From Candidatus Aenigmatarchaeota archaeon (lineage in GTDB: Archaea; Aenigmatarchaeota; Aenigmatarchaeia; CG10238-14): 13,577 nucleotides of DNA. Positions 1 to 13,577 of this stretch are shown here, in pieces. Under the pieces are notes generated by a model. The model did not search any database. It had not been told where the DNA came from and saw nothing but the letters and a program-made list of their open reading frames with translations. Numbering within the stretch: the first letter of the stretch is position 1; each line of letters begins with the position of its first letter. The position numbers and the translations under genes were made by a program. The stretch lies in the NCBI GenBank assembly GCA_017610225.1, contig JAFCCM010000046.1:1-13577 (forward strand). Reading direction: 5' to 3'.

Positions 1-854
1 CACTTCCAACAGGTTTAAAACAGGTTGCCAATATTGAAGGGATGAAATTATATTCATCCGAAAAATTAAAGAAAGCATTTTTATTATCATTTTTAAAATC
101 AGGTAGAGGTAAACCAATTTATCCTAGTATTGAAAAAATGATAGATAATGGTTTAATAACACCATGTTATCTAAGTAAAAATTTATTTAGATTATTTAAA
201 CATAAGATGACAGGTGGGTTAAATAAAACCATTATGGGATTTTACTATTTACATAATAAAAAAGTATATGTTTTAATTGATAATAATATCAATATATTCG
301 GTTCTGCTTCAAATGATTTAATTGTATCTACTACAATGCATGAATGTATGCATCTATGTGCTGGTAGATTTAAATCAAGATTTTTATCATTGTTTAAACC
401 TGTATTAAAGAAATTTTATGAAAATGTATTTACAGGAATATTCAAATTAAAATCTCCATTGAACACTGAAAAAATAATAAACTTTATTATGAGATTTGAA
501 AATAGTACCCCTAAAGTTATTAATAAAGAATTGTCTAATTATTTTAGGTTATTAGAAAAAGAAATGAAAGATATATCATCTCTTAACGATAAAGAATTTA
601 GAAGAGTTTTAACAGATTATATTGTTTCTATAAAAATTTCAATGACTAGCTTTCCAGTATTTGCAAAAATGTATAGAAAATATGTCCATATTTTCGGACC
701 TTTACATAAATCATATGAACAAACTTTTGGAAAAAGAAATAAATACACTACAGTATTTCAAGAATTATATGCTCCATCTGAAGTAATATGTGTCTTATCA
801 GAAATGGCACCAACTACTTCAATAATAAAAAAGGCATTTAAACTAATGGGTTAG
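1..854 (+). CDS. HExxH metallopeptidase-like phage protein, 5' end outside the window
   Basis: The frame is open from the first bases of the window. An ATG exists at 42, but its only purine-rich stretch (GAAGGG) abuts the start codon, unlike the well-spaced ribosome sites of the neighbouring genes, so I treat the gene as 5'-truncated with about 13 extra residues visible before that ATG. Numbering from that ATG, residues 100-104 read H-E-C-M-H, the zinc-binding HExxH signature of gluzincin/metzincin-type peptidases. A possible third ligand lies in the C-terminal segment ELYAPSEVICVLSE (about residues 240-255), but this is a guess. The protein is basic and has no clear membrane segment. Its TAG stop overlaps the ribosome site of the tape measure gene, so the two are co-translated. 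In T4 this position belongs to the hub gene 28, so a tail-hub or tail-processing role is plausible but unproven. Peptidase activity is inferred from the motif alone. Confidence 0.6.
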   Translation, partial: LPTGLKQVANIEGMKLYSSEKLKKAFLLSFLKSGRGKPIYPSIEKMIDNGLITPCYLSKNLFRLFKHKMTGGLNKTIMGFYYLHNKKVYVLIDNNINIFGSASNDLIVSTTMHECMHLCAGRFKSRFLSLFKPVLKKFYENVFTGIFKLKSPLNTEKIINFIMRFENSTPKVINKELSNYFRLLEKEMKDISSLNDKEFRRVLTDYIVSIKISMTSFPVFAKMYRKYVHIFGPLHKSYEQTFGKRNKYTTVFQELYAPSEVICVLSEMAPTTSIIKKAFKLMG

Positions 855-5839: not shown

Positions 5840-8290
5840 TTAAAAAACCCTAACAGAAATATTTGATAATGTAAAATAAATATATTCTGGAGAAAATTCT
5901 AATAATTGTGTCTGTGTAAAATTATCAATATCATAATCAAAGAAGATAGAAGATTCTGGTTTTACAACTCTGCATCTTTCAACCCCATCAACTTCTTGAA
6001 CAACATCAATAATTTCCGATCTAAAAATATTAATATTAATACCAAATCTACTTGAAAATTCACTATAGATAGCATTCCTTACAGCACTAGTTAAATCTCC
6101 AAGGGAGCCACTATAAGATGAATTTTTAAAAACATCAACTTCAATTACCAAAGGAATCTCATATTCAGGAATAACCCAACCAGATTCTGAATAAATATAT
6201 TTTTTATTATCGCTTTGAACTAAAACCATTTGATCTGGGTTTGGTTCTACAAAGGACCATGTATCTACACCTGTACAAGTTGCAAAATATTTATTATAAT
6301 TCTCCCAAAGACCAGTTCCTTTTCCTACAATATAAATATCACCAACAACACCTGGAGAAGGTGGATCTGAAATTATAGACACAATTATTTTATTGGTTGT
6401 ATTTAACTGCATATTGTTCATACTACCAGTAGTGTTACCAAACTTTAAACTTACAAAATCTGTCAACATTCTATAATCTTCAAAAGTAGTATTGTTTATT
6501 AATTCTTGTAAAACTTGTAATTCAAAATCTCGTTGATTAATACTATCATAATAACTCTTTTTTATCACAGGAATATCATATACAATATGTCCGGTAGAAT
6601 CTTGAGGCACAGTATCAGACATAGTAAAATCCCTTAAAGATTTTCTAAATGTAAACTGTGTTGAATATGTAGATACCAATCCTGATGAATTTGAAATATG
6701 AAATCTGTATGTTAATTCTCCAGCAGGAACAATTATATAATTTACAAATTCAAGAACAAAAGTTCCAGTAGTGTCATTAGTCATATTATATCTTGCACCA
6801 ATCTCAACAATTTCCATCTCACAAGTTGTAGTACCAGCATCTGATTCTGTTGATGTATAACTCAGTTCATATACAGCTTTTTGATCTTCTCGTTTGGACA
6901 CCAACTTAGTTGCTTGCATATCATAGTCAGTATCAAATGTAGTAGTTAAACTAGGAATTAATTCAAGTTCAAATAAAATATAATCATAATCTGCTACAGA
7001 ATTTAAAGAATCAATAGTCATATCAAAAATAGTATAAAAATCATCTCCACCAATAGTTACTTCTGTTTGTCTTGGAATATATGTTGAAGTAAATAATTGG
7101 AAAGTATCTCTAGTAGGTACTATAGCACCATCAAAAAACAATGTTGTAAATAAACTAATTTCATTTACCTTAAGATCTGATCGTTTTAATATTGGTAAAG
7201 AATTTGAACCAAGAGTTGAGTTTTGAACAATTGTGTCAATATTTGCAAAATCATTTCCTGTCACTATTCTATTAAGTGCTGTTAAATTAGTAATTGAATT
7301 AGATCTTATAGATTCTAAAGATTCTTCATCTATTCCATTAACTGCTGCTGATGTGTTAACTACAGTATAACTAACCAGCTGTGTTATTCCTGATAAAGTT
7401 GTATTATAGATTCTATCTCCACTGGTAATTGAACCCGCAATCACATTACCATCTAGTCCTTTTGTTAAACTTGTAGTTACCTTTATTCTTCCACCAGCTG
7501 GAGGCTGAACCCCATTTAATCCATTACCAAAAGAAATTTTAATACCAGAGTCAGTTCTTGAAGAAACATAACCTAAATCATTATTATCCATCAAAAATAA
7601 ACTATTAAATAAGGTATATATAGTCCACGATGTAGCTCCCGCTTCCTGAACCTCGACAACCAAGTTAGATACCTGACCATCCAATTCAACTTCTTGATCA
7701 TAAAATTGATAAGTTTGTAAATCAGAATCAATTTGAAATTCTTGAATATCAGCTTTAATTTGTTTTACAGGCAATACAAAAGAAAATTCATTTTCAGCAG
7801 TATCAATATCAACTGGAAAATTATATGTTTTATTTCCTTCTTGTACACTAATAGAAACAGTCGAATTATCAGTTACTGTAATTGTTGTAATATAATATGT
7901 TTTAAACTCTATATCCGAACTTTTAAAAACAGCACCAGTTGGGATCACAAATTCAGTGGCCGAATCTGTAAATGAAAATGGCATAGTAATTAAAACATTC
8001 ACTATTGCTGGAGTAGCTTCAGATACAGTATAACCTAAAAATGATGATAGGTTTAATATTGATTCGGGTAATTGAGCTTTAGTAAGAAAGAATTCTTTAT
8101 ATGTTGATACTTGATAAAATAAAGTATTGCTTGTTAAAGTCGCTAAAACCTCAATAATAAAAGAAAGAAATGATGATTTGACTAAATCAACATTCTCCAA
8201 TTCAAGGTAGGATTGTAAATATTTTATAATTTGATTTTTAATTTCATTTCTTGAAAGAAAAATTTGATTTGATAAACTTGTATCAGCCAT
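5840..8290 (-). CDS. Baseplate wedge protein, gp6 / Baseplate_J family
   Basis: An 816-aa protein with the hallmarks of the T4 gp6 / P2 gpJ baseplate family. Around residues 255-275 it has FGNGLNGVQPPAGGRIKV followed by a GLDGN turn, the typical core strand pattern. Around residues 330-350 it has NRIVTGNDFANIDTIVQN, matching the family's conserved R-V-T-x-x-D-[FY] segment. The C-terminal 100 residues (IEVDVF, then FGININIFRSEIIDVVQEVDGV) look like the dimerisation region that closes the baseplate ring. In known phages this protein forms the inner ring of wedge subunits that dilates on contraction. Residues 641-706 look like an inserted extra domain resembling DUF2793 (PPSPGVVGDIYIV then a W, W, Y-x-Y, W pattern). 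The gene starts 19 bases after the 220-aa gene, with AAGGA about 11 bases upstream of ATG. It is longer than T4 gp6 (about 660 aa), partly because of the insert. Confidence 0.88.
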   Translation of the reverse strand: MADTSLSNQIFLSRNEIKNQIIKYLQSYLELENVDLVKSSFLSFIIEVLATLTSNTLFYQVSTYKEFFLTKAQLPESILNLSSFLGYTVSEATPAIVNVLITMPFSFTDSATEFVIPTGAVFKSSDIEFKTYYITTITVTDNSTVSISVQEGNKTYNFPVDIDTAENEFSFVLPVKQIKADIQEFQIDSDLQTYQFYDQEVELDGQVSNLVVEVQEAGATSWTIYTLFNSLFLMDNNDLGYVSSRTDSGIKISFGNGLNGVQPPAGGRIKVTTSLTKGLDGNVIAGSITSGDRIYNTTLSGITQLVSYTVVNTSAAVNGIDEESLESIRSNSITNLTALNRIVTGNDFANIDTIVQNSTLGSNSLPILKRSDLKVNEISLFTTLFFDGAIVPTRDTFQLFTSTYIPRQTEVTIGGDDFYTIFDMTIDSLNSVADYDYILFELELIPSLTTTFDTDYDMQATKLVSKREDQKAVYELSYTSTESDAGTTTCEMEIVEIGARYNMTNDTTGTFVLEFVNYIIVPAGELTYRFHISNSSGLVSTYSTQFTFRKSLRDFTMSDTVPQDSTGHIVYDIPVIKKSYYDSINQRDFELQVLQELINNTTFEDYRMLTDFVSLKFGNTTGSMNNMQLNTTNKIIVSIISDPPSPGVVGDIYIVGKGTGLWENYNKYFATCTGVDTWSFVEPNPDQMVLVQSDNKKYIYSESGWVIPEYEIPLVIEVDVFKNSSYSGSLGDLTSAVRNAIYSEFSSRFGININIFRSEIIDVVQEVDGVERCRVVKPESSIFFDYDIDNFTQTQLLEFSPEYIYFTLSNISVRVF
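6172..6370 (-). other. DUF2793-like domain inserted in gp6 (residues 641-706)
   Basis: The segment reads SDPPSPGVVGDIYIVGKGTG, then a Trp, then a second Trp-centred block (DTWSFVEP), then a polar stretch, KYIY and a closing SGWV. That order of P-x-x-GD-x-YIV, W, W-x-F-x-x-P, Y-x-Y and W is how I remember the DUF2793 module found in phage tail-fibre and host-recognition proteins. It sits between two parts that read as normal gp6/J C-terminal sequence. Assignment is by memory of the pattern and has not been tested by profile search. Confidence 0.55.
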
Positions 8291-9414: not shown

Positions 9415-9657
9415 TTATTTTGCTCCCAAGTTTAAATTACCAGCATGTTCTTCCATAGCTTTTCTTCTTTCCTCTTCAAGTTTTGACTTCCATTTAAGAT
9501 AATTATAAAAGCGCTGAAGAGGCATTGAAACAACATGCTTATATGATTGATTACTCATTTCCATACATGCAAAAATATTTTCTTCCAATTCATCTCGAAA
9601 TTTATTTTGTAAATCAGACCGAGTACACCATACGAAAAAAGTTCTGGACCAAGTCAA
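9415..9657 (-). CDS. Small tail-assembly protein overlapping the gp26-like gene (TTG start, or a +1 frameshift extension)
   Basis: An 80-aa reading frame that begins inside the gp26-like gene (44-base overlap, +1 relative frame) and ends immediately before the gp25 ATG. TTG at 9657 is preceded by AGAGGAGG with a nine-base spacer, the best ribosome site in the area. The ATG codons at 9564 and 9558 have no well-placed site. The protein is helical: residues 15-35 are charged, then a VVSMPLQRFYNYLKWK core, then an acidic/basic LEEERRKAMEEH helix. The pattern of a helix followed by MP-x-x-R-[FY] recalls C-terminal segments of phage hub or tail-assembly chaperones. It may be made separately by coupled initiation, or as a C-terminal extension of the upstream protein through slippage at TTT-TTT-C. 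Function is inferred from context. Confidence 0.7.
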   Translation of the reverse strand: MTWSRTFFVWCTRSDLQNKFRDELEENIFACMEMSNQSYKHVVSMPLQRFYNYLKWKSKLEEERRKAMEEHAGNLNLGAK

Positions 9658-10402
9658 GGTCCACGTCCTCCTCTTGCCCGCAATGGATACATGTACTTTT
9701 CATCTTTAATGCAATCCCATATTTACCAAATGTTTTTCTATAGGTTGAATGTATTTCTCTCTTGTCTCTAGAAGGAAGGGATAGATAAGCATCAATAATA
9801 TCACCAGGTTCATTCCAGACAATTAAGTCTCCATTTTCTGGAAGTTGTTTAAACTCATGTATAACAAGAGTTTCTGTTATAATATCAACATTTGCAGCTG
9901 GTTGAGATCCCAGTGTTTTAAACGCCAATAACTCTTCAAACATTGTTGGTTGTTTAATTGTTGCAGTAACTCCTTTTGAAATAGGTAACTCAACTTCAAC
10001 TTTCTTTTTTAATACATCTTTATCAGGATAACTTAATGAACTAAATGTTTCAGATGCCTTAACTGTTATCTGATAATTCTTTGCACAGTTACCACATTTG
10101 ATTTCATAATTTCTAATGTCTTCATATGTAATATGATATAAACCATATAGAAGAGCATCCCGATCTTTTAAAGTAACATTTTTTAAAAAATTTTCATAGG
10201 TTTTAATCTTAGCAGGTTTTTTAACTAATGAATCATAAATACATTTATTTAAATGTTCTGTAATTTTTGATGGTGTTAAAAAGCTAGCTTTTAATCGTTC
10301 TTCCTCTTGAACATTAAGTGTTCTGGTGTGATATGAGTCATGTGTTTGAGGAGTAATGACTTCATATTCCGGATACTTTAAATCGACAAATGATGTAAAC
10401 AT
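9614..10402 (-). CDS. Baseplate hub assembly chaperone, gp26 (T4_baseplate) family-like, with a zinc ribbon
   Basis: A 262-aa protein. I place the start at ATG 10402, not at the upstream TTG 10423, because AAGGAG lies six bases before this ATG and overlaps the sequence that the longer form would translate. Two Cys pairs, C103-x-x-C106 (KCGNC) and C238-x-x-C241 (CIHCG), suggest one zinc ribbon formed around a central domain. The segment before the first pair (RDALLYGLYHITYEDIRNYE) and the closing DLDLVQNFFR look like the T4 gp26-type chaperone family, which also has these cysteines. In T4, gp26 helps assemble the central hub of the baseplate. The TGA stop lies within the nested 80-aa frame. 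Gene position just before gp25 matches the T4 25-26 neighbourhood. Family assignment is from memory of the pattern. Confidence 0.68.
   Translation of the reverse strand: MFTSFVDLKYPEYEVITPQTHDSYHTRTLNVQEEERLKASFLTPSKITEHLNKCIYDSLVKKPAKIKTYENFLKNVTLKDRDALLYGLYHITYEDIRNYEIKCGNCAKNYQITVKASETFSSLSYPDKDVLKKKVEVELPISKGVTATIKQPTMFEELLAFKTLGSQPAANVDIITETLVIHEFKQLPENGDLIVWNEPGDIIDAYLSLPSRDKREIHSTYRKTFGKYGIALKMKSTCIHCGQEEDVDLDLVQNFFRMVYSV
9667..9674 (-). promoter_or_regulatory. Internal Shine-Dalgarno AGAGGAGG inside the gp26-like gene
   Basis: Minus-strand AGAGGAGG ends nine bases before TTG at 9657. It lies inside codons for the GQEEDV segment of the chaperone gene. It is the main sequence evidence that the nested 80-aa frame is translated on its own. 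Confidence 0.6.
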
Positions 10403-10408
10403 AAAAAT

Positions 10409-10414
10409 CTCCTT
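10409..10414 (-). promoter_or_regulatory. Ribosome binding site fixing the gp26-like start
   Basis: AAGGAG on the minus strand with a six-base spacer to ATG at 10402. It argues against the longer TTG-started form at 10423, which would place this site inside the coding sequence. Confidence 0.75.
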
Positions 10415-10433
10415 TCTTTTCAAATCTAATTAT

Positions 10434-10919
10434 TTATTTATTTTGACTTCCCCATTTATATTTAAACTTTTCTTCTTTTTCTGCAAGTTTTTCTTTTAAT
10501 GACTGCAAAGCATTATTTACTCTATCTTTACACAAACCAGGATCTTCTGTTTTTCTACAAGTAGCAAGAGCTGAAGAAAGCATATTAATCTTTTTCTTTA
10601 AGTCATCCATTGAAACTCTTTGAATACACATTGTTCTTTGATTACTAATTCTAAGAGTTCCACACAATCGCCTTTTTTTACTTACTGAAGCTCCTATTGC
10701 TCTCCATAATACCCAAAAAGGACCTCCCAATACAGCTCCTATTGTTTGTGCTATAACATCTTCTTTAATAATTTGTTCTATTGTTTCAGAACCAAATAAG
10801 CATTTCATTTCATCATCAGATGTTTCTTTAATATATTTCAAAATATCTATTTTCTGGCCTTTTGAAATATTCTTATTTTCATGCACAAGAACTATACAAA
10901 TTGTTTTTAAACCAATCAT
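10434..10919 (-). CDS. Four-cysteine membrane-anchored protein, short paralog (161 aa)
   Basis: The smallest of three tandem paralogs. Cys86, Cys98, Cys121 and Cys130 give C-X11-C-X22-C-X8-C, matching the other two copies almost exactly, followed by a charged amphipathic helix (LQSLKEKLAEKEEK). A hydrophobic, Trp-containing segment at about residues 55-73 precedes the first Cys by a short basic stretch (KKRR), as in its neighbours. Residues 5-45 (TICIVLVHENK, then ILKYIKETSDDEM) align with residues about 20-60 of the 342-aa protein (ETLCLLINESK, then LKSFIINEASDYQI). The long variable linker and part of the N-terminal domain are missing, so it is a compact version and not an obvious pseudogene. 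AGAGGA lies ten bases before ATG and overlaps the previous stop region. I do not know its function. Confidence 0.85.
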   Translation of the reverse strand: MIGLKTICIVLVHENKNISKGQKIDILKYIKETSDDEMKCLFGSETIEQIIKEDVIAQTIGAVLGGPFWVLWRAIGASVSKKRRLCGTLRISNQRTMCIQRVSMDDLKKKINMLSSALATCRKTEDPGLCKDRVNNALQSLKEKLAEKEEKFKYKWGSQNK

Positions 10920-10933
10920 GGTGGTATTATCCT

Positions 10934-11962
10934 CTAAACAGCTTTACTTATTTTTTTATTAATTTTATCCATTTTATTTTTTATTGTTTTTACACACTTT
11001 TCAGGATTTTTAGTTAAACCACATTGAGTAGCTGCTCTCTTCAAATCTATAAGTTGTGCTTTATATGCTGAAAGTTGAAATTTTTTCATACAAGTTGTTT
11101 TCTTTAAACCCTTATATGAAGAGCAACTCTTGGCAGCTTTACTATAGAATCTTTTATATATTTTAACACTTGCATAAATAGCTAATATTGCTAACATAAC
11201 TCCAGCAATTTCATTTGGATGAGCTTTAACAAATGATGTTGTTGCATTAGTAGCTGATGATGCTTGTTGTTTGAGATTATTAAATGATTTAGTAATTTGA
11301 GCTCTTAAAGTAACACTTTTCTTAACTATATCAGAAGTAGATCCTTCTGGTTTGTTAACTACTTTTGATATTACCTTTGTTGATAATTTTGGTTTATCAA
11401 TTACTTTTTTAACTAATTTTGAGGTACTACTTATATCAGCTTTAGGTTTTAAATCAGAAGAAGCATAATTTTTAGCTACTGCTTTTTTAGCACTATCTAA
11501 CATAGCTTTTATTTTAGGGTCTATTTTATATTTACTAGGTTTAACTGGACCTTTTCCAGCATTCTTTAACATATTCTGTATACTATATGGATTATCATCA
11601 TCTACTTCTAATAAAGGTTTCCTTGTAGAAAATTTCGGACTAATGGAATCAACTTTTTTAACAACATCATCAAAAATATCAGCTCCAAACATTTCACAAA
11701 CAAAATTTTTATTCTCTTTAACTTCTAATCTTATTCTTTCAAATAAAACTAATTCATTAAAGTAATTAAACTCATTTAATGGAAGTTCACCATCCACAAC
11801 CAAAGATGCTATTTGATAATCTGATGCTTCATTAATTATAAATGATTTTAGTTCTTTCTTGTAAGGAATCTTTGATTCATTTATTAAAAGACAAAGAGTC
11901 TCTCTCATTGATAGTAAAAATAAAAGAGACTCTTTTAATTTAAAGTTCTCTGCTATTATCAT
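10934..11962 (-). CDS. Four-cysteine membrane-anchored protein, middle paralog (342 aa)
   Basis: Residues 1-120 are a helical domain with FIINEASDYQI and YFNELVLFERI, closely matching the 391-aa neighbour. Residues 125-250 are a Lys/Ser/Val-rich, low-complexity linker, likely disordered. A predicted transmembrane helix spans about 251-267 (AGVMLAILAIYASVKIY), followed by KRF and SKAAKSC. Cys280, Cys291, Cys314 and Cys323 give C-X10-C-X22-C-X8-C, with NPEKC at the last Cys, and the protein ends in a basic helix. The pattern suggests a helical hairpin pinned by two disulfides or by metal. AGGA lies six bases before ATG and overlaps the stop region of the upstream paralog. Location between tube and chaperone genes suggests a virion or tail-assembly role. 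No known family is recognised. Confidence 0.88.
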   Translation of the reverse strand: MIIAENFKLKESLLFLLSMRETLCLLINESKIPYKKELKSFIINEASDYQIASLVVDGELPLNEFNYFNELVLFERIRLEVKENKNFVCEMFGADIFDDVVKKVDSISPKFSTRKPLLEVDDDNPYSIQNMLKNAGKGPVKPSKYKIDPKIKAMLDSAKKAVAKNYASSDLKPKADISSTSKLVKKVIDKPKLSTKVISKVVNKPEGSTSDIVKKSVTLRAQITKSFNNLKQQASSATNATTSFVKAHPNEIAGVMLAILAIYASVKIYKRFYSKAAKSCSSYKGLKKTTCMKKFQLSAYKAQLIDLKRAATQCGLTKNPEKCVKTIKNKMDKINKKISKAV

Positions 11963-11970
11963 ATAAGATC

Positions 11971-13146
11971 CTATGCTGCTATTTGAGCTTTCATTTTTTG
12001 CATTTTTACTTGTAAATTTGAAATCTTTTTCTGAATAGGAACTTTACATTTCTCTGGACTCTTAGATTTAGCACAAGCACTCATAGCTGAAGCCAAATCT
12101 TTAATTTGGGCGCCAACAGCACCATGTTGATATTTTTTCATACATATAGTTTTAGCCTTTCCTGACTGTCCAGTACATGATTTAGCTGCCTTGCTCATAA
12201 ATCTTTTATAAACTTTAACTGAAGCATAAAGAGCTAATGCCGCAAGAGCAGCACCACCCACAGTCATACCAGCTTGACTTGTTACTGCTTTTTGTAGTGC
12301 TGGAGCCGCCGCTATAGCTTTAGCTTTAATAGCAGCTAAAAAACCTGCACCACTACCTGCACCACTACCTACACCACTTTGTTGTTTTAATGATGCTTGA
12401 GCCCCAGCTTTAAGACCAGTTGCATCACTCATTCCAGAAGCTTTTTTTCCAGCAAAACCAAATAACTTATTAGCTGTTCCAGCATCAATTCCTTTACCAA
12501 CATAAGCAGATTTACCAACTTTACCCACAACTTTTTGTTGTATACTAAACATCTTATTAGCTGTTGAAGGGTCAACTCCCTTATTAGTTAATTTAAGAAT
12601 AGCAAGCTTTTTATTCCCTGAGGCAACAGCTGTTCTTCCTGCTTTTCCAAGAAAAGATGAAACCTTATTAGCTGCTTTTGCAAGATCAGCTGGAGCATTC
12701 CCATGTTTCATATAATCAACAACTTTCTGAATTCCAACACCTTCTTTATCAAATACTTCATTTAAAATATGATCTTTAGTTGCGAGTTGAAATTCCAAAA
12801 TCGGTGCAGCTGAAGAAAAATTTGGGTATACTGTATCAACTTCATTAATAAATGTTGAAATATCTTCCCCAATATATTTGCCAATTGTATTAAAGTTAAT
12901 TAAAACTTGTTCTTTTAAATTACTAAAAAGTATAATTTCATCAACAAAATTATACTTTTCAACTGGCATTTTTTCATGTACTAACATATACATAATTTCA
13001 TAATCTGATGCTTCATTCACTAAAAAATTCTTTAATGCGCTTTTATGATCAACTGAAGAACTTTCAACCATATAAGATAGTGTCTCTCTTGCTGAAAGTA
13101 AAAATAAAATAGATTCAGCAATACTTTGATTTTCTGTAATAAACAT
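11971..13146 (-). CDS. Four-cysteine membrane-anchored protein, long paralog (391 aa)
   Basis: Residues 1-120 form the shared helical N-terminal domain (FLVNEASDYEI, FVDEIILFSNL, and a closing NFSSAAPILEF that matches KFSTRKPLLEV in the neighbour). Residues 148-235 hold three degenerate repeats centred on ANK: K161, K198 and K227, the last two reading GVDPSTANKMF and GIDAGTANKLF. A Gly/Ser/Ala-rich stretch follows (GVGSGAGSGAG). A transmembrane helix at about 294-312 leads into LYASVKVYKRFMSKAAKSC, nearly identical to the 342-aa copy. Cys324, Cys335, Cys358 and Cys367 give C-X10-C-X22-C-X8-C, followed by a basic amphipathic helix. AGGAGG lies ten bases before ATG. It follows the tail tube gene by 27 bases, so it is likely a late, virion-related gene. 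Function unknown. Confidence 0.88.
   Translation of the reverse strand: MFITENQSIAESILFLLSARETLSYMVESSSVDHKSALKNFLVNEASDYEIMYMLVHEKMPVEKYNFVDEIILFSNLKEQVLINFNTIGKYIGEDISTFINEVDTVYPNFSSAAPILEFQLATKDHILNEVFDKEGVGIQKVVDYMKHGNAPADLAKAANKVSSFLGKAGRTAVASGNKKLAILKLTNKGVDPSTANKMFSIQQKVVGKVGKSAYVGKGIDAGTANKLFGFAGKKASGMSDATGLKAGAQASLKQQSGVGSGAGSGAGFLAAIKAKAIAAAPALQKAVTSQAGMTVGGAALAALALYASVKVYKRFMSKAAKSCTGQSGKAKTICMKKYQHGAVGAQIKDLASAMSACAKSKSPEKCKVPIQKKISNLQVKMQKMKAQIAA
12430..12706 (-). repeat. Three degenerate coding repeats around the ANK motif
   Basis: Within the 391-aa protein, the units near residues 148-171, 190-212 and 219-236 share a Gly-x-x-Pro/Asp lead-in, then ANK, a hydrophobic pair, and GK. 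At DNA level a near-identical CTTATTAGCTG (plus strand) recurs at about 12466, 12553 and 12664. The spacing is irregular (29 and 37 residues between the Lys positions), which suggests old tandem duplication. Confidence 0.55.
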
Positions 13147-13173: not shown

Positions 13174-13577
13174 TTATCCTGATGCTGATGCTGATGAAAT
13201 AGTATTTCCATATTGTTCAATAACATTAGCTTTCATATTAAAAACAGTTTCTGCATATGTATTACATTTCTTTTTGACCCAAGGTTCATGCCATATATAA
13301 TCAACATTAAATTCAATTTCAATATCTAATCTTCCAACAGTTTCAACATCACTTGTAAATAAATCTTGAGGGTCTTTAGTTGGAAATAGACCATCGTAAC
13401 ACGCATAATATTCAACAGTTTTAGCATCTGGAGCTGTTGTCCAATAATACATCAACCCTGCATATTTTGATTTGGAATAACCCATTCCTTCATCATCTTC
13501 TACTAAATTAGAAACACCTGTTCTATAATCTCTAATCATTTTAACCCATCCGTGCATAATATTAAACACTGGTAATT
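13174..13577 (-). CDS. Tail tube protein (gp19-like), 5' end outside the window
   Basis: The frame is open to the window edge. A GTG at 13569 could be read as a start but has no ribosome site in the few bases seen, so the N-terminus is probably missing. The visible 131 residues read like the C-terminal two thirds of a contractile-phage tail tube protein: HGWVKMIRDYRTG, then AGLMYYWTT, then YACYDGLFPTKDPQD, then RLDIEIEFNVDYIW. The order of W-V-x-x-I-R-D, a Y-x-G-x-FPT turn and a closing V-x-x-x-V/I-x-F-x-x-D-Y strand is typical of the family. The C-terminal tail is Ser/Ala/Gly. Tube protein stacks in hexameric rings around the tape measure. It opens the visible minus-strand operon, 27 bases upstream of the 391-aa gene. 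Confidence 0.72.
   Translation of the reverse strand, partial: LPVFNIMHGWVKMIRDYRTGVSNLVEDDEGMGYSKSKYAGLMYYWTTAPDAKTVEYYACYDGLFPTKDPQDLFTSDVETVGRLDIEIEFNVDYIWHEPWVKKKCNTYAETVFNMKANVIEQYGNTISSASASG

What the first reader, a model, noticed from the sequence alone, without database searches (positions are those of the whole stretch)
10434..13146. Tandem family of three membrane-anchored proteins with a C-X10/11-C-X22-C-X8-C domain
Three adjacent genes of 391, 342 and 161 aa share the same order: a helical N-terminal domain with a (N/T)EASDY-like motif, a linker of very different length, one transmembrane helix, a basic YKRF/KKRR stretch, and a C-terminal four-cysteine domain. The cysteine spacing is nearly invariant (X22 and X8 identical in all three). 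The paired spacing resembles the logic of helical hairpins with two disulfides (as in eukaryotic CX9C proteins), but homology is not implied. Disulfides in a phage protein would suggest a part that works outside the cytoplasm. Position between tail tube and hub chaperone suggests virion proteins, perhaps carried in the tail lumen or ejected into the host envelope. I recognise no named family.
Basis: partly seen in the sequence, partly recalled or inferred. Interest (0 to 1): 0.75.

Follow-up and report, generated by a model that had tools for sequence, protein, structure and literature searches.

The report
Stapled-helix membrane proteins in jumbo phages
Large uncultured phages carry an undescribed protein family of varying copy number that joins a membrane-like helix to a small domain apparently held by cysteine bridges, encoded among both tail and head genes, which may be a shared part for getting cargo or DNA through the host's inner membrane.

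Summary
Confirmed: three adjacent genes (391, 342, 161 aa) share N-terminal domain (NTD; halved in the third), linker, hydrophobic helix and a C-X10/11-C-X22-C-X8-C domain (CTD). Not chance: in 174 distinct CTDs the four cysteine columns hold 170-173 cysteines. An extra pair at -4/+4 of C1/C2 is gained together (44 of 44), and C1/C2 and C3/C4 are mostly lost as pairs, so C1-C2 and C3-C4 probably staple two helix turns, unlike CHCH proteins. No match found in Pfam, PHROGs, NCBIfam, fold searches or named phages. In loci chosen by the hub gene, 40 of 60 carry 1-3 copies between tail tube and hub; in 19 of the 20 others tube and hub lie 31-99 nt apart: an accessory insertion. CTD genes also lie near gp25, near an RNA polymerase gene, and between portal and prohead protease. 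Full NTDs occur in 68 of 98 tube-hub copies and 2 of 58 elsewhere. Best reading (0.42): modular virion cargo with a position-specific N-terminal address and a common stapled membrane rod, ejected to help cross the inner membrane; inferred, not shown. In passing: a conserved likely +1 frameshift site in the hub gene.

The parts
11971..13146 (-). gene A, 391 aa: full NTD, long linker, hydrophobic helix, CTD
   Evidence: (NTD 1e-32, CTD 3e-29)
12046..12177 (-). four-Cys stretch of gene A (C324, C335, C358, C367)
10934..11962 (-). gene B, 342 aa: full NTD, linker, hydrophobic helix, CTD
   Evidence: (NTD 3e-32, CTD 4e-26); 24 other relatives
11618..11962 (-). NTD of gene B (residues 1-115), six helices in the model
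   Evidence: 82% identity to the window in 16 close relatives
11219..11617 (-). disordered linker of gene B (residues 116-248), variable in length
   Evidence: 65% identity and 11.5% gaps
11147..11218 (-). hydrophobic helix of gene B (residues 249-272)
10994..11125 (-). four-Cys stretch of gene B (C280, C291, C314, C323)
   Evidence: all four invariant in 55 rows
10434..10919 (-). gene C, 161 aa: diverged half-NTD, weak hydrophobic helix, CTD
   Evidence: (CTD 7e-19); 17 other relatives
10530..10664 (-). four-Cys stretch of gene C (C86, C98, C121, C130)
13174..13575 (-). flanking gene: tail-tube-like (cut by the window end)
   Evidence: phrog_21400; full-length ortholog in L001 also hits tail tube phrog_45 at 7.5e-5
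9614..10423 (-). flanking gene: T4 gp26/gp51-like hub chaperone
   Evidence: PF12322 6.9e-10; phrog_150 2.7e-10

Best explanation
A modular family of virion cargo or pilot proteins of a jumbo myophage lineage. Shown by sequence: members share the CTD, usually after a hydrophobic helix; the N-terminal part goes with genomic position; copy number between tube and hub varies from 0 to 8; the genes lie in tail, baseplate and head-core modules. Supported by covariation and a model: the CTD is a three-helix rod with disulfide-type staples C1-C2 and C3-C4, a third staple in some paralogs. Inferred: the NTD docks a copy at its station (full NTD at the tube/hub end, half or none elsewhere), the flexible lysine-rich linker lets it be threaded through tube or portal, and on infection the hydrophobic helix and basic stapled rod reach the host inner membrane, where several copies line or gate the passage for DNA and proteins. 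The staples would form after lysis or outside the cytoplasm and keep the part compact outside the cell.
For: Position between tail tube and hub and between portal and prohead protease in three head modules, the two ends of the delivery path. Accessory, with recurrent gain or loss (L010 has a copy, L093 none, hubs at least 95% identical), as expected of cargo. Station-specific N-terminus (68 of 98 against 2 of 58). Four cysteines kept in 170-173 of 174 and co-gained extra pair 44 of 44. Net charge after the helix +3.8 against +0.7 before it (NTD+CTD domains): under the positive-inside rule an ordinary host-inserted orientation would put the cysteines in the reducing cytoplasm. Precedent: crAss001 cargo protein gp45, found in capsid and tail, with a predicted transmembrane helix (PMC10172136, passages).
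Against: No virion proteomics or functional data. Some CTD copies lack a hydrophobic helix. Corrected for ancestry, the extra Cys pair gives only 3 well-supported independent changes, not significant. The large CTD and position counts are not corrected for relatedness. No DsbA-like gene in 7 of 7 phage contigs searched. Charge distribution and hydropathy are also compatible with a helix buried in a bundle.
Confidence: 0.42

Rival explanations
1. Membrane tethers for assembly: the hydrophobic helix holds head-core and baseplate intermediates on the host inner membrane while they assemble, the NTD gripping the intermediate; the protein need not remain in the virion.
For: Genes sit exactly in head-core and baseplate modules. 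T4 heads start on the inner membrane through portal protein and YidC, and SPN3US proheads are seen on it (PMC9026906, passages).
Against: 20 of 60 loci lack the gene at the tail site, odd for an assembly need, although several such phages carry copies elsewhere. Up to eight tandem copies. Conserved paired cysteines have no evident use in the cytoplasm.
Confidence: 0.2
2. Fixed structural parts of tail or baseplate: the hydrophobic helix is not in a membrane but packs in a helical bundle or oligomer, for instance in the tube lumen or hub, and the cysteines lock it after release.
For: Tail operon position. Moderate hydrophobicity; 98 of 174 scored domains lie between 1.0 and 1.6. The model forms a helical bundle-like layout.
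Against: Tube and hub abut without it in 19 of 60 loci. CTD genes also occur in head modules. The linker is disordered in the model.
Confidence: 0.2
3. Late non-virion membrane proteins acting on the host envelope, for example superinfection exclusion or lysis timing, that happen to lie in structural operons.
For: Accessory, paralogous, hydrophobic helix.
Against: N-terminal type follows the structural module; genes are tightly packed with tail genes (8 and 14 nt between A, B and C).
Confidence: 0.08
4. The CTD is a four-cysteine zinc site rather than two disulfide staples.
For: Four nearly invariant cysteines; a weak sub-threshold zf-Tnp_2 match of gene C (E 0.042).
Against: The pairs come and go separately and a third pair is added at -4/+4. 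The hub gene next door shows an ordinary CxxC...CxxC set.
Confidence: 0.06

Closest known systems
crAss001 cargo protein gp45 and podophage ejection proteins (T7, P22)
   Same: Virion-region proteins with a predicted membrane helix, head and tail association, set varying between related phages (PMC10172136, passages).
   Different: No sequence comparison was made; gp45 is far larger (90.8 kDa). Here one small stapled domain is reused in many genes, and virion presence is unproven.
Paralog families of giant phage heads (SPN3US families A and B, phiKZ inner-head proteins)
   Same: Paralogous virion proteins whose number varies strongly between phages (PMC5694885, passages).
   Different: Those are head proteins; this family lies in tail and head modules and matches no Pfam family, whereas family A has similarity to pfam12699.
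Small TIM (twin CX3C) and CHCH (CX9C) proteins
   Same: Helical hairpins held by cysteine pairs; six-Cys paralogs here have CX3C-Xn-CX3C at the first turn.
   Different: Pairs staple successive turns (C1-C2, C3-C4) with X22 between; the window copies have no CX3C or CX9C; no homology found.
T4 hub proteins gp27, gp28, gp29
   Same: Same neighbourhood as gp26, gp51 and gp25.
   Different: A, B and C match none of phrog_1135, phrog_1140, phrog_1283, the families of gp27, gp28 and gp29; the tail module exists without them.

Membership tests
CHCH / twin CX9C | Two CX9C motifs on antiparallel helices with crossed pairing (definition recalled) | tested here: not met
   Spacing 10-11/22/8 in the window; co-gain and co-loss couple C1-C2 and C3-C4
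Small TIM / twin CX3C | CX3C-Xn-CX3C helical hairpin (definition recalled) | tested here: not met
   Absent in the window's three; the spacing is present only in the six-Cys paralogs, 44 of 174 domains
T4 gp27 / gp28 / gp29 hub proteins | Match to the PHROG of each | tested here: not met
   T4 proteins match phrog_1135, 1140 and 1283; A, B and C show none of these up to E 1
Phage ejection / cargo proteins | Present inside virions and delivered into the host | not testable with these tools
   Only genomic position, accessory pattern and anatomy
Phage ejection / cargo proteins | Gene lies in head or tail structural modules | tested here: met
   Tube-hub; portal-protease in L044, L047, L049
Known protein folds (PDB) | Clear structural match of NTD or CTD | tested here: inconclusive
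AR9/PBS1-like jumbo phages as carriers of the family | CTD/NTD gene in the genome | tested here: not met
   No match in AR9, Machias, BpSp or T4 records with profile A2, although AR9 and PBS1 hub genes are distant homologs (20-21%)

The most novel reading that the evidence does not exclude
A phage-wide 'address plus stapled membrane rod' system: one small disulfide-stapled helical module is placed at several stations of the same virion (tail-tube end, baseplate, portal/core) by exchangeable N-terminal docking domains, and the delivered copies co-assemble into the inner-membrane conduit of jumbo myophages.
Probability: 0.25. Interest if true: 0.82.

Novelty: new variant of a known kind. Interest (0 to 1): 0.6.

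Why it matters
How DNA and proteins cross the inner membrane after tail contraction is unsettled for myophages (my knowledge; the T4 tail review seen in passages treats it as speculation). A recognisable family with a testable cysteine-stapled domain, placed in both tail and head modules of many uncultivated jumbo phage contigs, gives concrete candidates, and gives a marker for many unnamed genes in the structural regions of huge phages.

Tried and rejected
CHCH homology: spacing and inferred pairing do not fit. Zinc site: pairs vary separately. T4 gp27/28/29: no PHROG match; weak phrog_184 hits (E 0.027 for B; 0.17 for P0024) start in the linker and were not pursued. Named phages: tblastn of gene A (E<=1), of a CTD (E<=1) and of two other members (E<=10) gave nothing credible (two hits at E 7 and 10). 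Solved structures by sequence: best E 0.09, an inovirus chain. BFVD: best E 0.41. DsbA in phage contigs 0 of 7, thioredoxin 2 of 7; neither decides the redox question. Archaeal host: both genome-collection hits are in archaeal MAGs and a source of P0019 names a Thorarchaeota MAG; I suspect misbinning but did not test it. Protease cleavage motifs, duplication order, PADLOC and sulphur distances were not examined. Literature: searches listed no paper that describes this family, a limited test of an open-licence library; some searches were seen as listings only. The pooled set of 168 CTD proteins comes from capped lists (best 80 loci), family-selected loci and regions picked because they hold a copy, so its proportions are not frequencies in nature.

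Full report
OBSERVATION. The three ORFs lie at the stated coordinates. Cysteine gaps are 10/22/8, 10/22/8 and 11/22/8, and no other frame of the window holds the pattern. Hydropathy maxima just before the first cysteine suit a transmembrane helix in the first two and less so in the third. None of the three has a meaningful Pfam, PHROG or NCBIfam match.

NEIGHBOURHOOD. On one side is a tail-tube-like gene (phrog_21400; its full-length ortholog also hits tail tube phrog_45). On the other come a T4 gp26/gp51-like hub chaperone (PF12322, phrog_150), gp25, a 220-aa gene and gp6; a candidate tape measure gene (phrog_15478, E 0.0016) and a structural gene lie on the opposite strand. Named phages are distant: 22-28% identity for gp6 (22 records) and 20-23% for the hub (7 records: AR9/PBS1-like and one Listeria phage). 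Relatives of B and of C occur on a contig of 306,369 bases, so the phage is probably a jumbo phage.

FAMILY. B has 24 other relatives in about 5.8 billion proteins; C has 17, of which 15 are exactly 161 aa. IMG/VR gave 32 loci. Iterated NTD and CTD profiles show a modular family: NTD+CTD, CTD alone, NTD alone, double NTD, fused copies, and one locus (L026) with eight tandem NTD+CTD genes. In close relatives of B, NTD and CTD are 82% and 83% identical to the window and the linker 65% with 11.5% gaps.

SURVEY NOT CHOSEN BY THE FAMILY. Loci were fetched by the hub gene (225 relatives, best 80 kept). Of the 80, 60 hold both tube and hub; between them lie 0, 1, 2 or 3 family genes in 20, 21, 15 and 4 loci. 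In 19 of the 20 empty loci tube and hub are 31-99 nt apart; L083 has an 886-nt gap with no recognised member. At 95% hub identity there are 47 groups with 15/17/11/4, the one mixed pair counted as empty. On a hub tree of 48 rows presence needs 6 changes (3 forced by well-supported branches) against a shuffled mean of 13: clustered, but changed more than once. So the family is an accessory insertion at a fixed place. Some empty phages have copies elsewhere: of 12 further records searched, which include empty and non-empty ones, 8 have a match.

OTHER STATIONS. Of 12 records searched first, 8 have matches and the four named phages none. I fetched 12 further regions because they hold copies. Three are head modules. 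L044: portal (phrog_213), acidic gene, CTD gene, protease (phrog_207), second CTD gene, two small genes, major capsid protein (phrog_138). L047: portal, CTD gene, acidic gene, protease, small genes, capsid protein. L049 has the same order, with the protease found by PHROGs; its portal and capsid genes are assigned by order and length only (in one search they were seeds of the profiles, so that is no test). In L023 a CTD gene and an acidic NTD gene precede a gene matching PHROG 'protease' phrog_20754. Other copies stand between gp25 and p220, near a structural gene (phrog_20751; L045, L191), near tail-fibre genes (L046) and near an RNA polymerase beta-subunit gene (L193).

ADDRESS AND ROD. Of 168 distinct CTD proteins from all fetched loci (the window's own not counted), 12 cut at the 5' end were set aside. 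A full NTD is found in 68 of 98 tube-hub copies (or copies up to 9 kb before the hub where the tube is off the contig) and in 2 of 58 elsewhere; one of those two, L014, is in fact next to a tube gene on a contig that ends before the hub. Of 32 copies between hub and p220, 28 have no recognised NTD. Fisher p is 1e-17, not corrected for relatedness.

CYSTEINES. In a first set of 69 CTDs each of the four columns holds 67 cysteines, and an extra pair at -4 of C1 and +4 of C2 occurs in 9, a tenth having the second only. In 174 distinct domains of at least 70 aa (the window's three included) the columns hold 170, 173, 172 and 173; all 44 domains with the first extra cysteine have the second, which occurs in 45. 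C3 and C4 are both missing in L017_11443, L013_1848 and L039_2002; the last two look like orthologs and may be one event. C1 and C2 are both missing in L026_8271. Exceptions: three domains have C2 without C1, one lacks both, one has C4 without C3, one lacks both C3 and C4. On a tree built without the extra columns the pair needs 7 changes, 3 on well-supported branches; the second column goes the same way in 2.9 of 3 on average, too few for significance. C2-C3 spacing is 22 in 121 and 18 in 46 of 174 pattern-scored domains; the 18 is what the pattern gives when it takes the outer cysteine of a six-Cys form.

MEMBRANE. Of 94 NTD+CTD domains 36 have a 19-residue mean of 1.6 or more, 57 of 1.0-1.6 and 1 less; of 80 CTD-only domains 25, 41 and 14. 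Mean net charge of the 15 residues after and before the helix is +3.8 and +0.7 (NTD+CTD; C side larger in 80 of 94) and +2.6 and +0.9 (CTD only; 53 of 80). By the positive-inside rule (recalled) ordinary insertion would put the cysteines in the cytoplasm; I read this as a hint that insertion, if any, is from outside, but a buried helix is also possible.

INTERPRETATION. A part that is accessory, multi-copy, encoded in both tail and head modules, flexible, membrane-like and apparently disulfide-stapled fits ejected virion cargo. The nearest functional parallel is crAss001 gp45 (PMC10172136, passages); variable paralog families are known in giant phage heads (PMC5694885, passages). The main rivals are a membrane tether for assembly (T4 and SPN3US heads begin on the inner membrane; PMC9026906, passages) and a fixed structural part; the T4 tail review leaves the minor hub proteins unsettled (PMC3004832, passages). 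Odds: cargo/pilot 0.42, tether 0.2, structural part 0.2.

NOVELTY. No named family, no credible relative in 50,697 phage records at the sensitivities used, no clear structural relative (weak matches do not exclude one), and nothing listed. The domain looks new; variable virion cargo paralogs are a known kind, hence 'new variant of a known kind'.

Noticed in passing
window 9415-10423, minus strand (end of the hub gene, AAC TTT TTT CGT): Likely programmed +1 frameshift: 103 of 104 hub genes (distinct in their last 300 nt) end with in-frame TTT TTT, followed by CGN in 102 and AGG in 1; the +1 frame is then open for 65-82 codons in 103 of 103 and the -1 frame never for 55. The extension is the small gp51-like frame. 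The residues FFR are themselves conserved, but TTT to TTC is 1332 to 355 in hub genes overall. T4 has two genes, 26 and 51, both phrog_150. The exception is L024 (TTC TTT CGC). Likeness to the influenza PA-X site UUU CGU is recalled.
   Followed up: partly
window 5840-8290, minus strand, residues about 640-706: The gp6-like baseplate wedge protein carries a DUF2793 match just above its cut-off (27.5 against 27 bits).
   Followed up: no
window 3-854, plus strand: The 270-283 aa protein beside the tape measure gene contains HECMH, an HExxH-like metalloprotease motif (seen in the translation; motif meaning recalled).
   Followed up: no
L033 487-1590 and protein P0024: Single open frames that hold CTD, double NTD and CTD in a row, as if a CTD-only gene were fused to an NTD+CTD gene.
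   Followed up: no
L047 8725-11727 and L048 3-2159: The portal gene and a ribonucleotide reductase gene of the L039 phage contig contain HNH endonuclease matches inside one open frame, suggesting intein-like insertions.
   Followed up: no
L038, L039: Both genome-collection relatives lie in archaeal MAGs (Thermoplasmatales, Woesearchaeota); misbinning suspected, host unknown.
   Followed up: no
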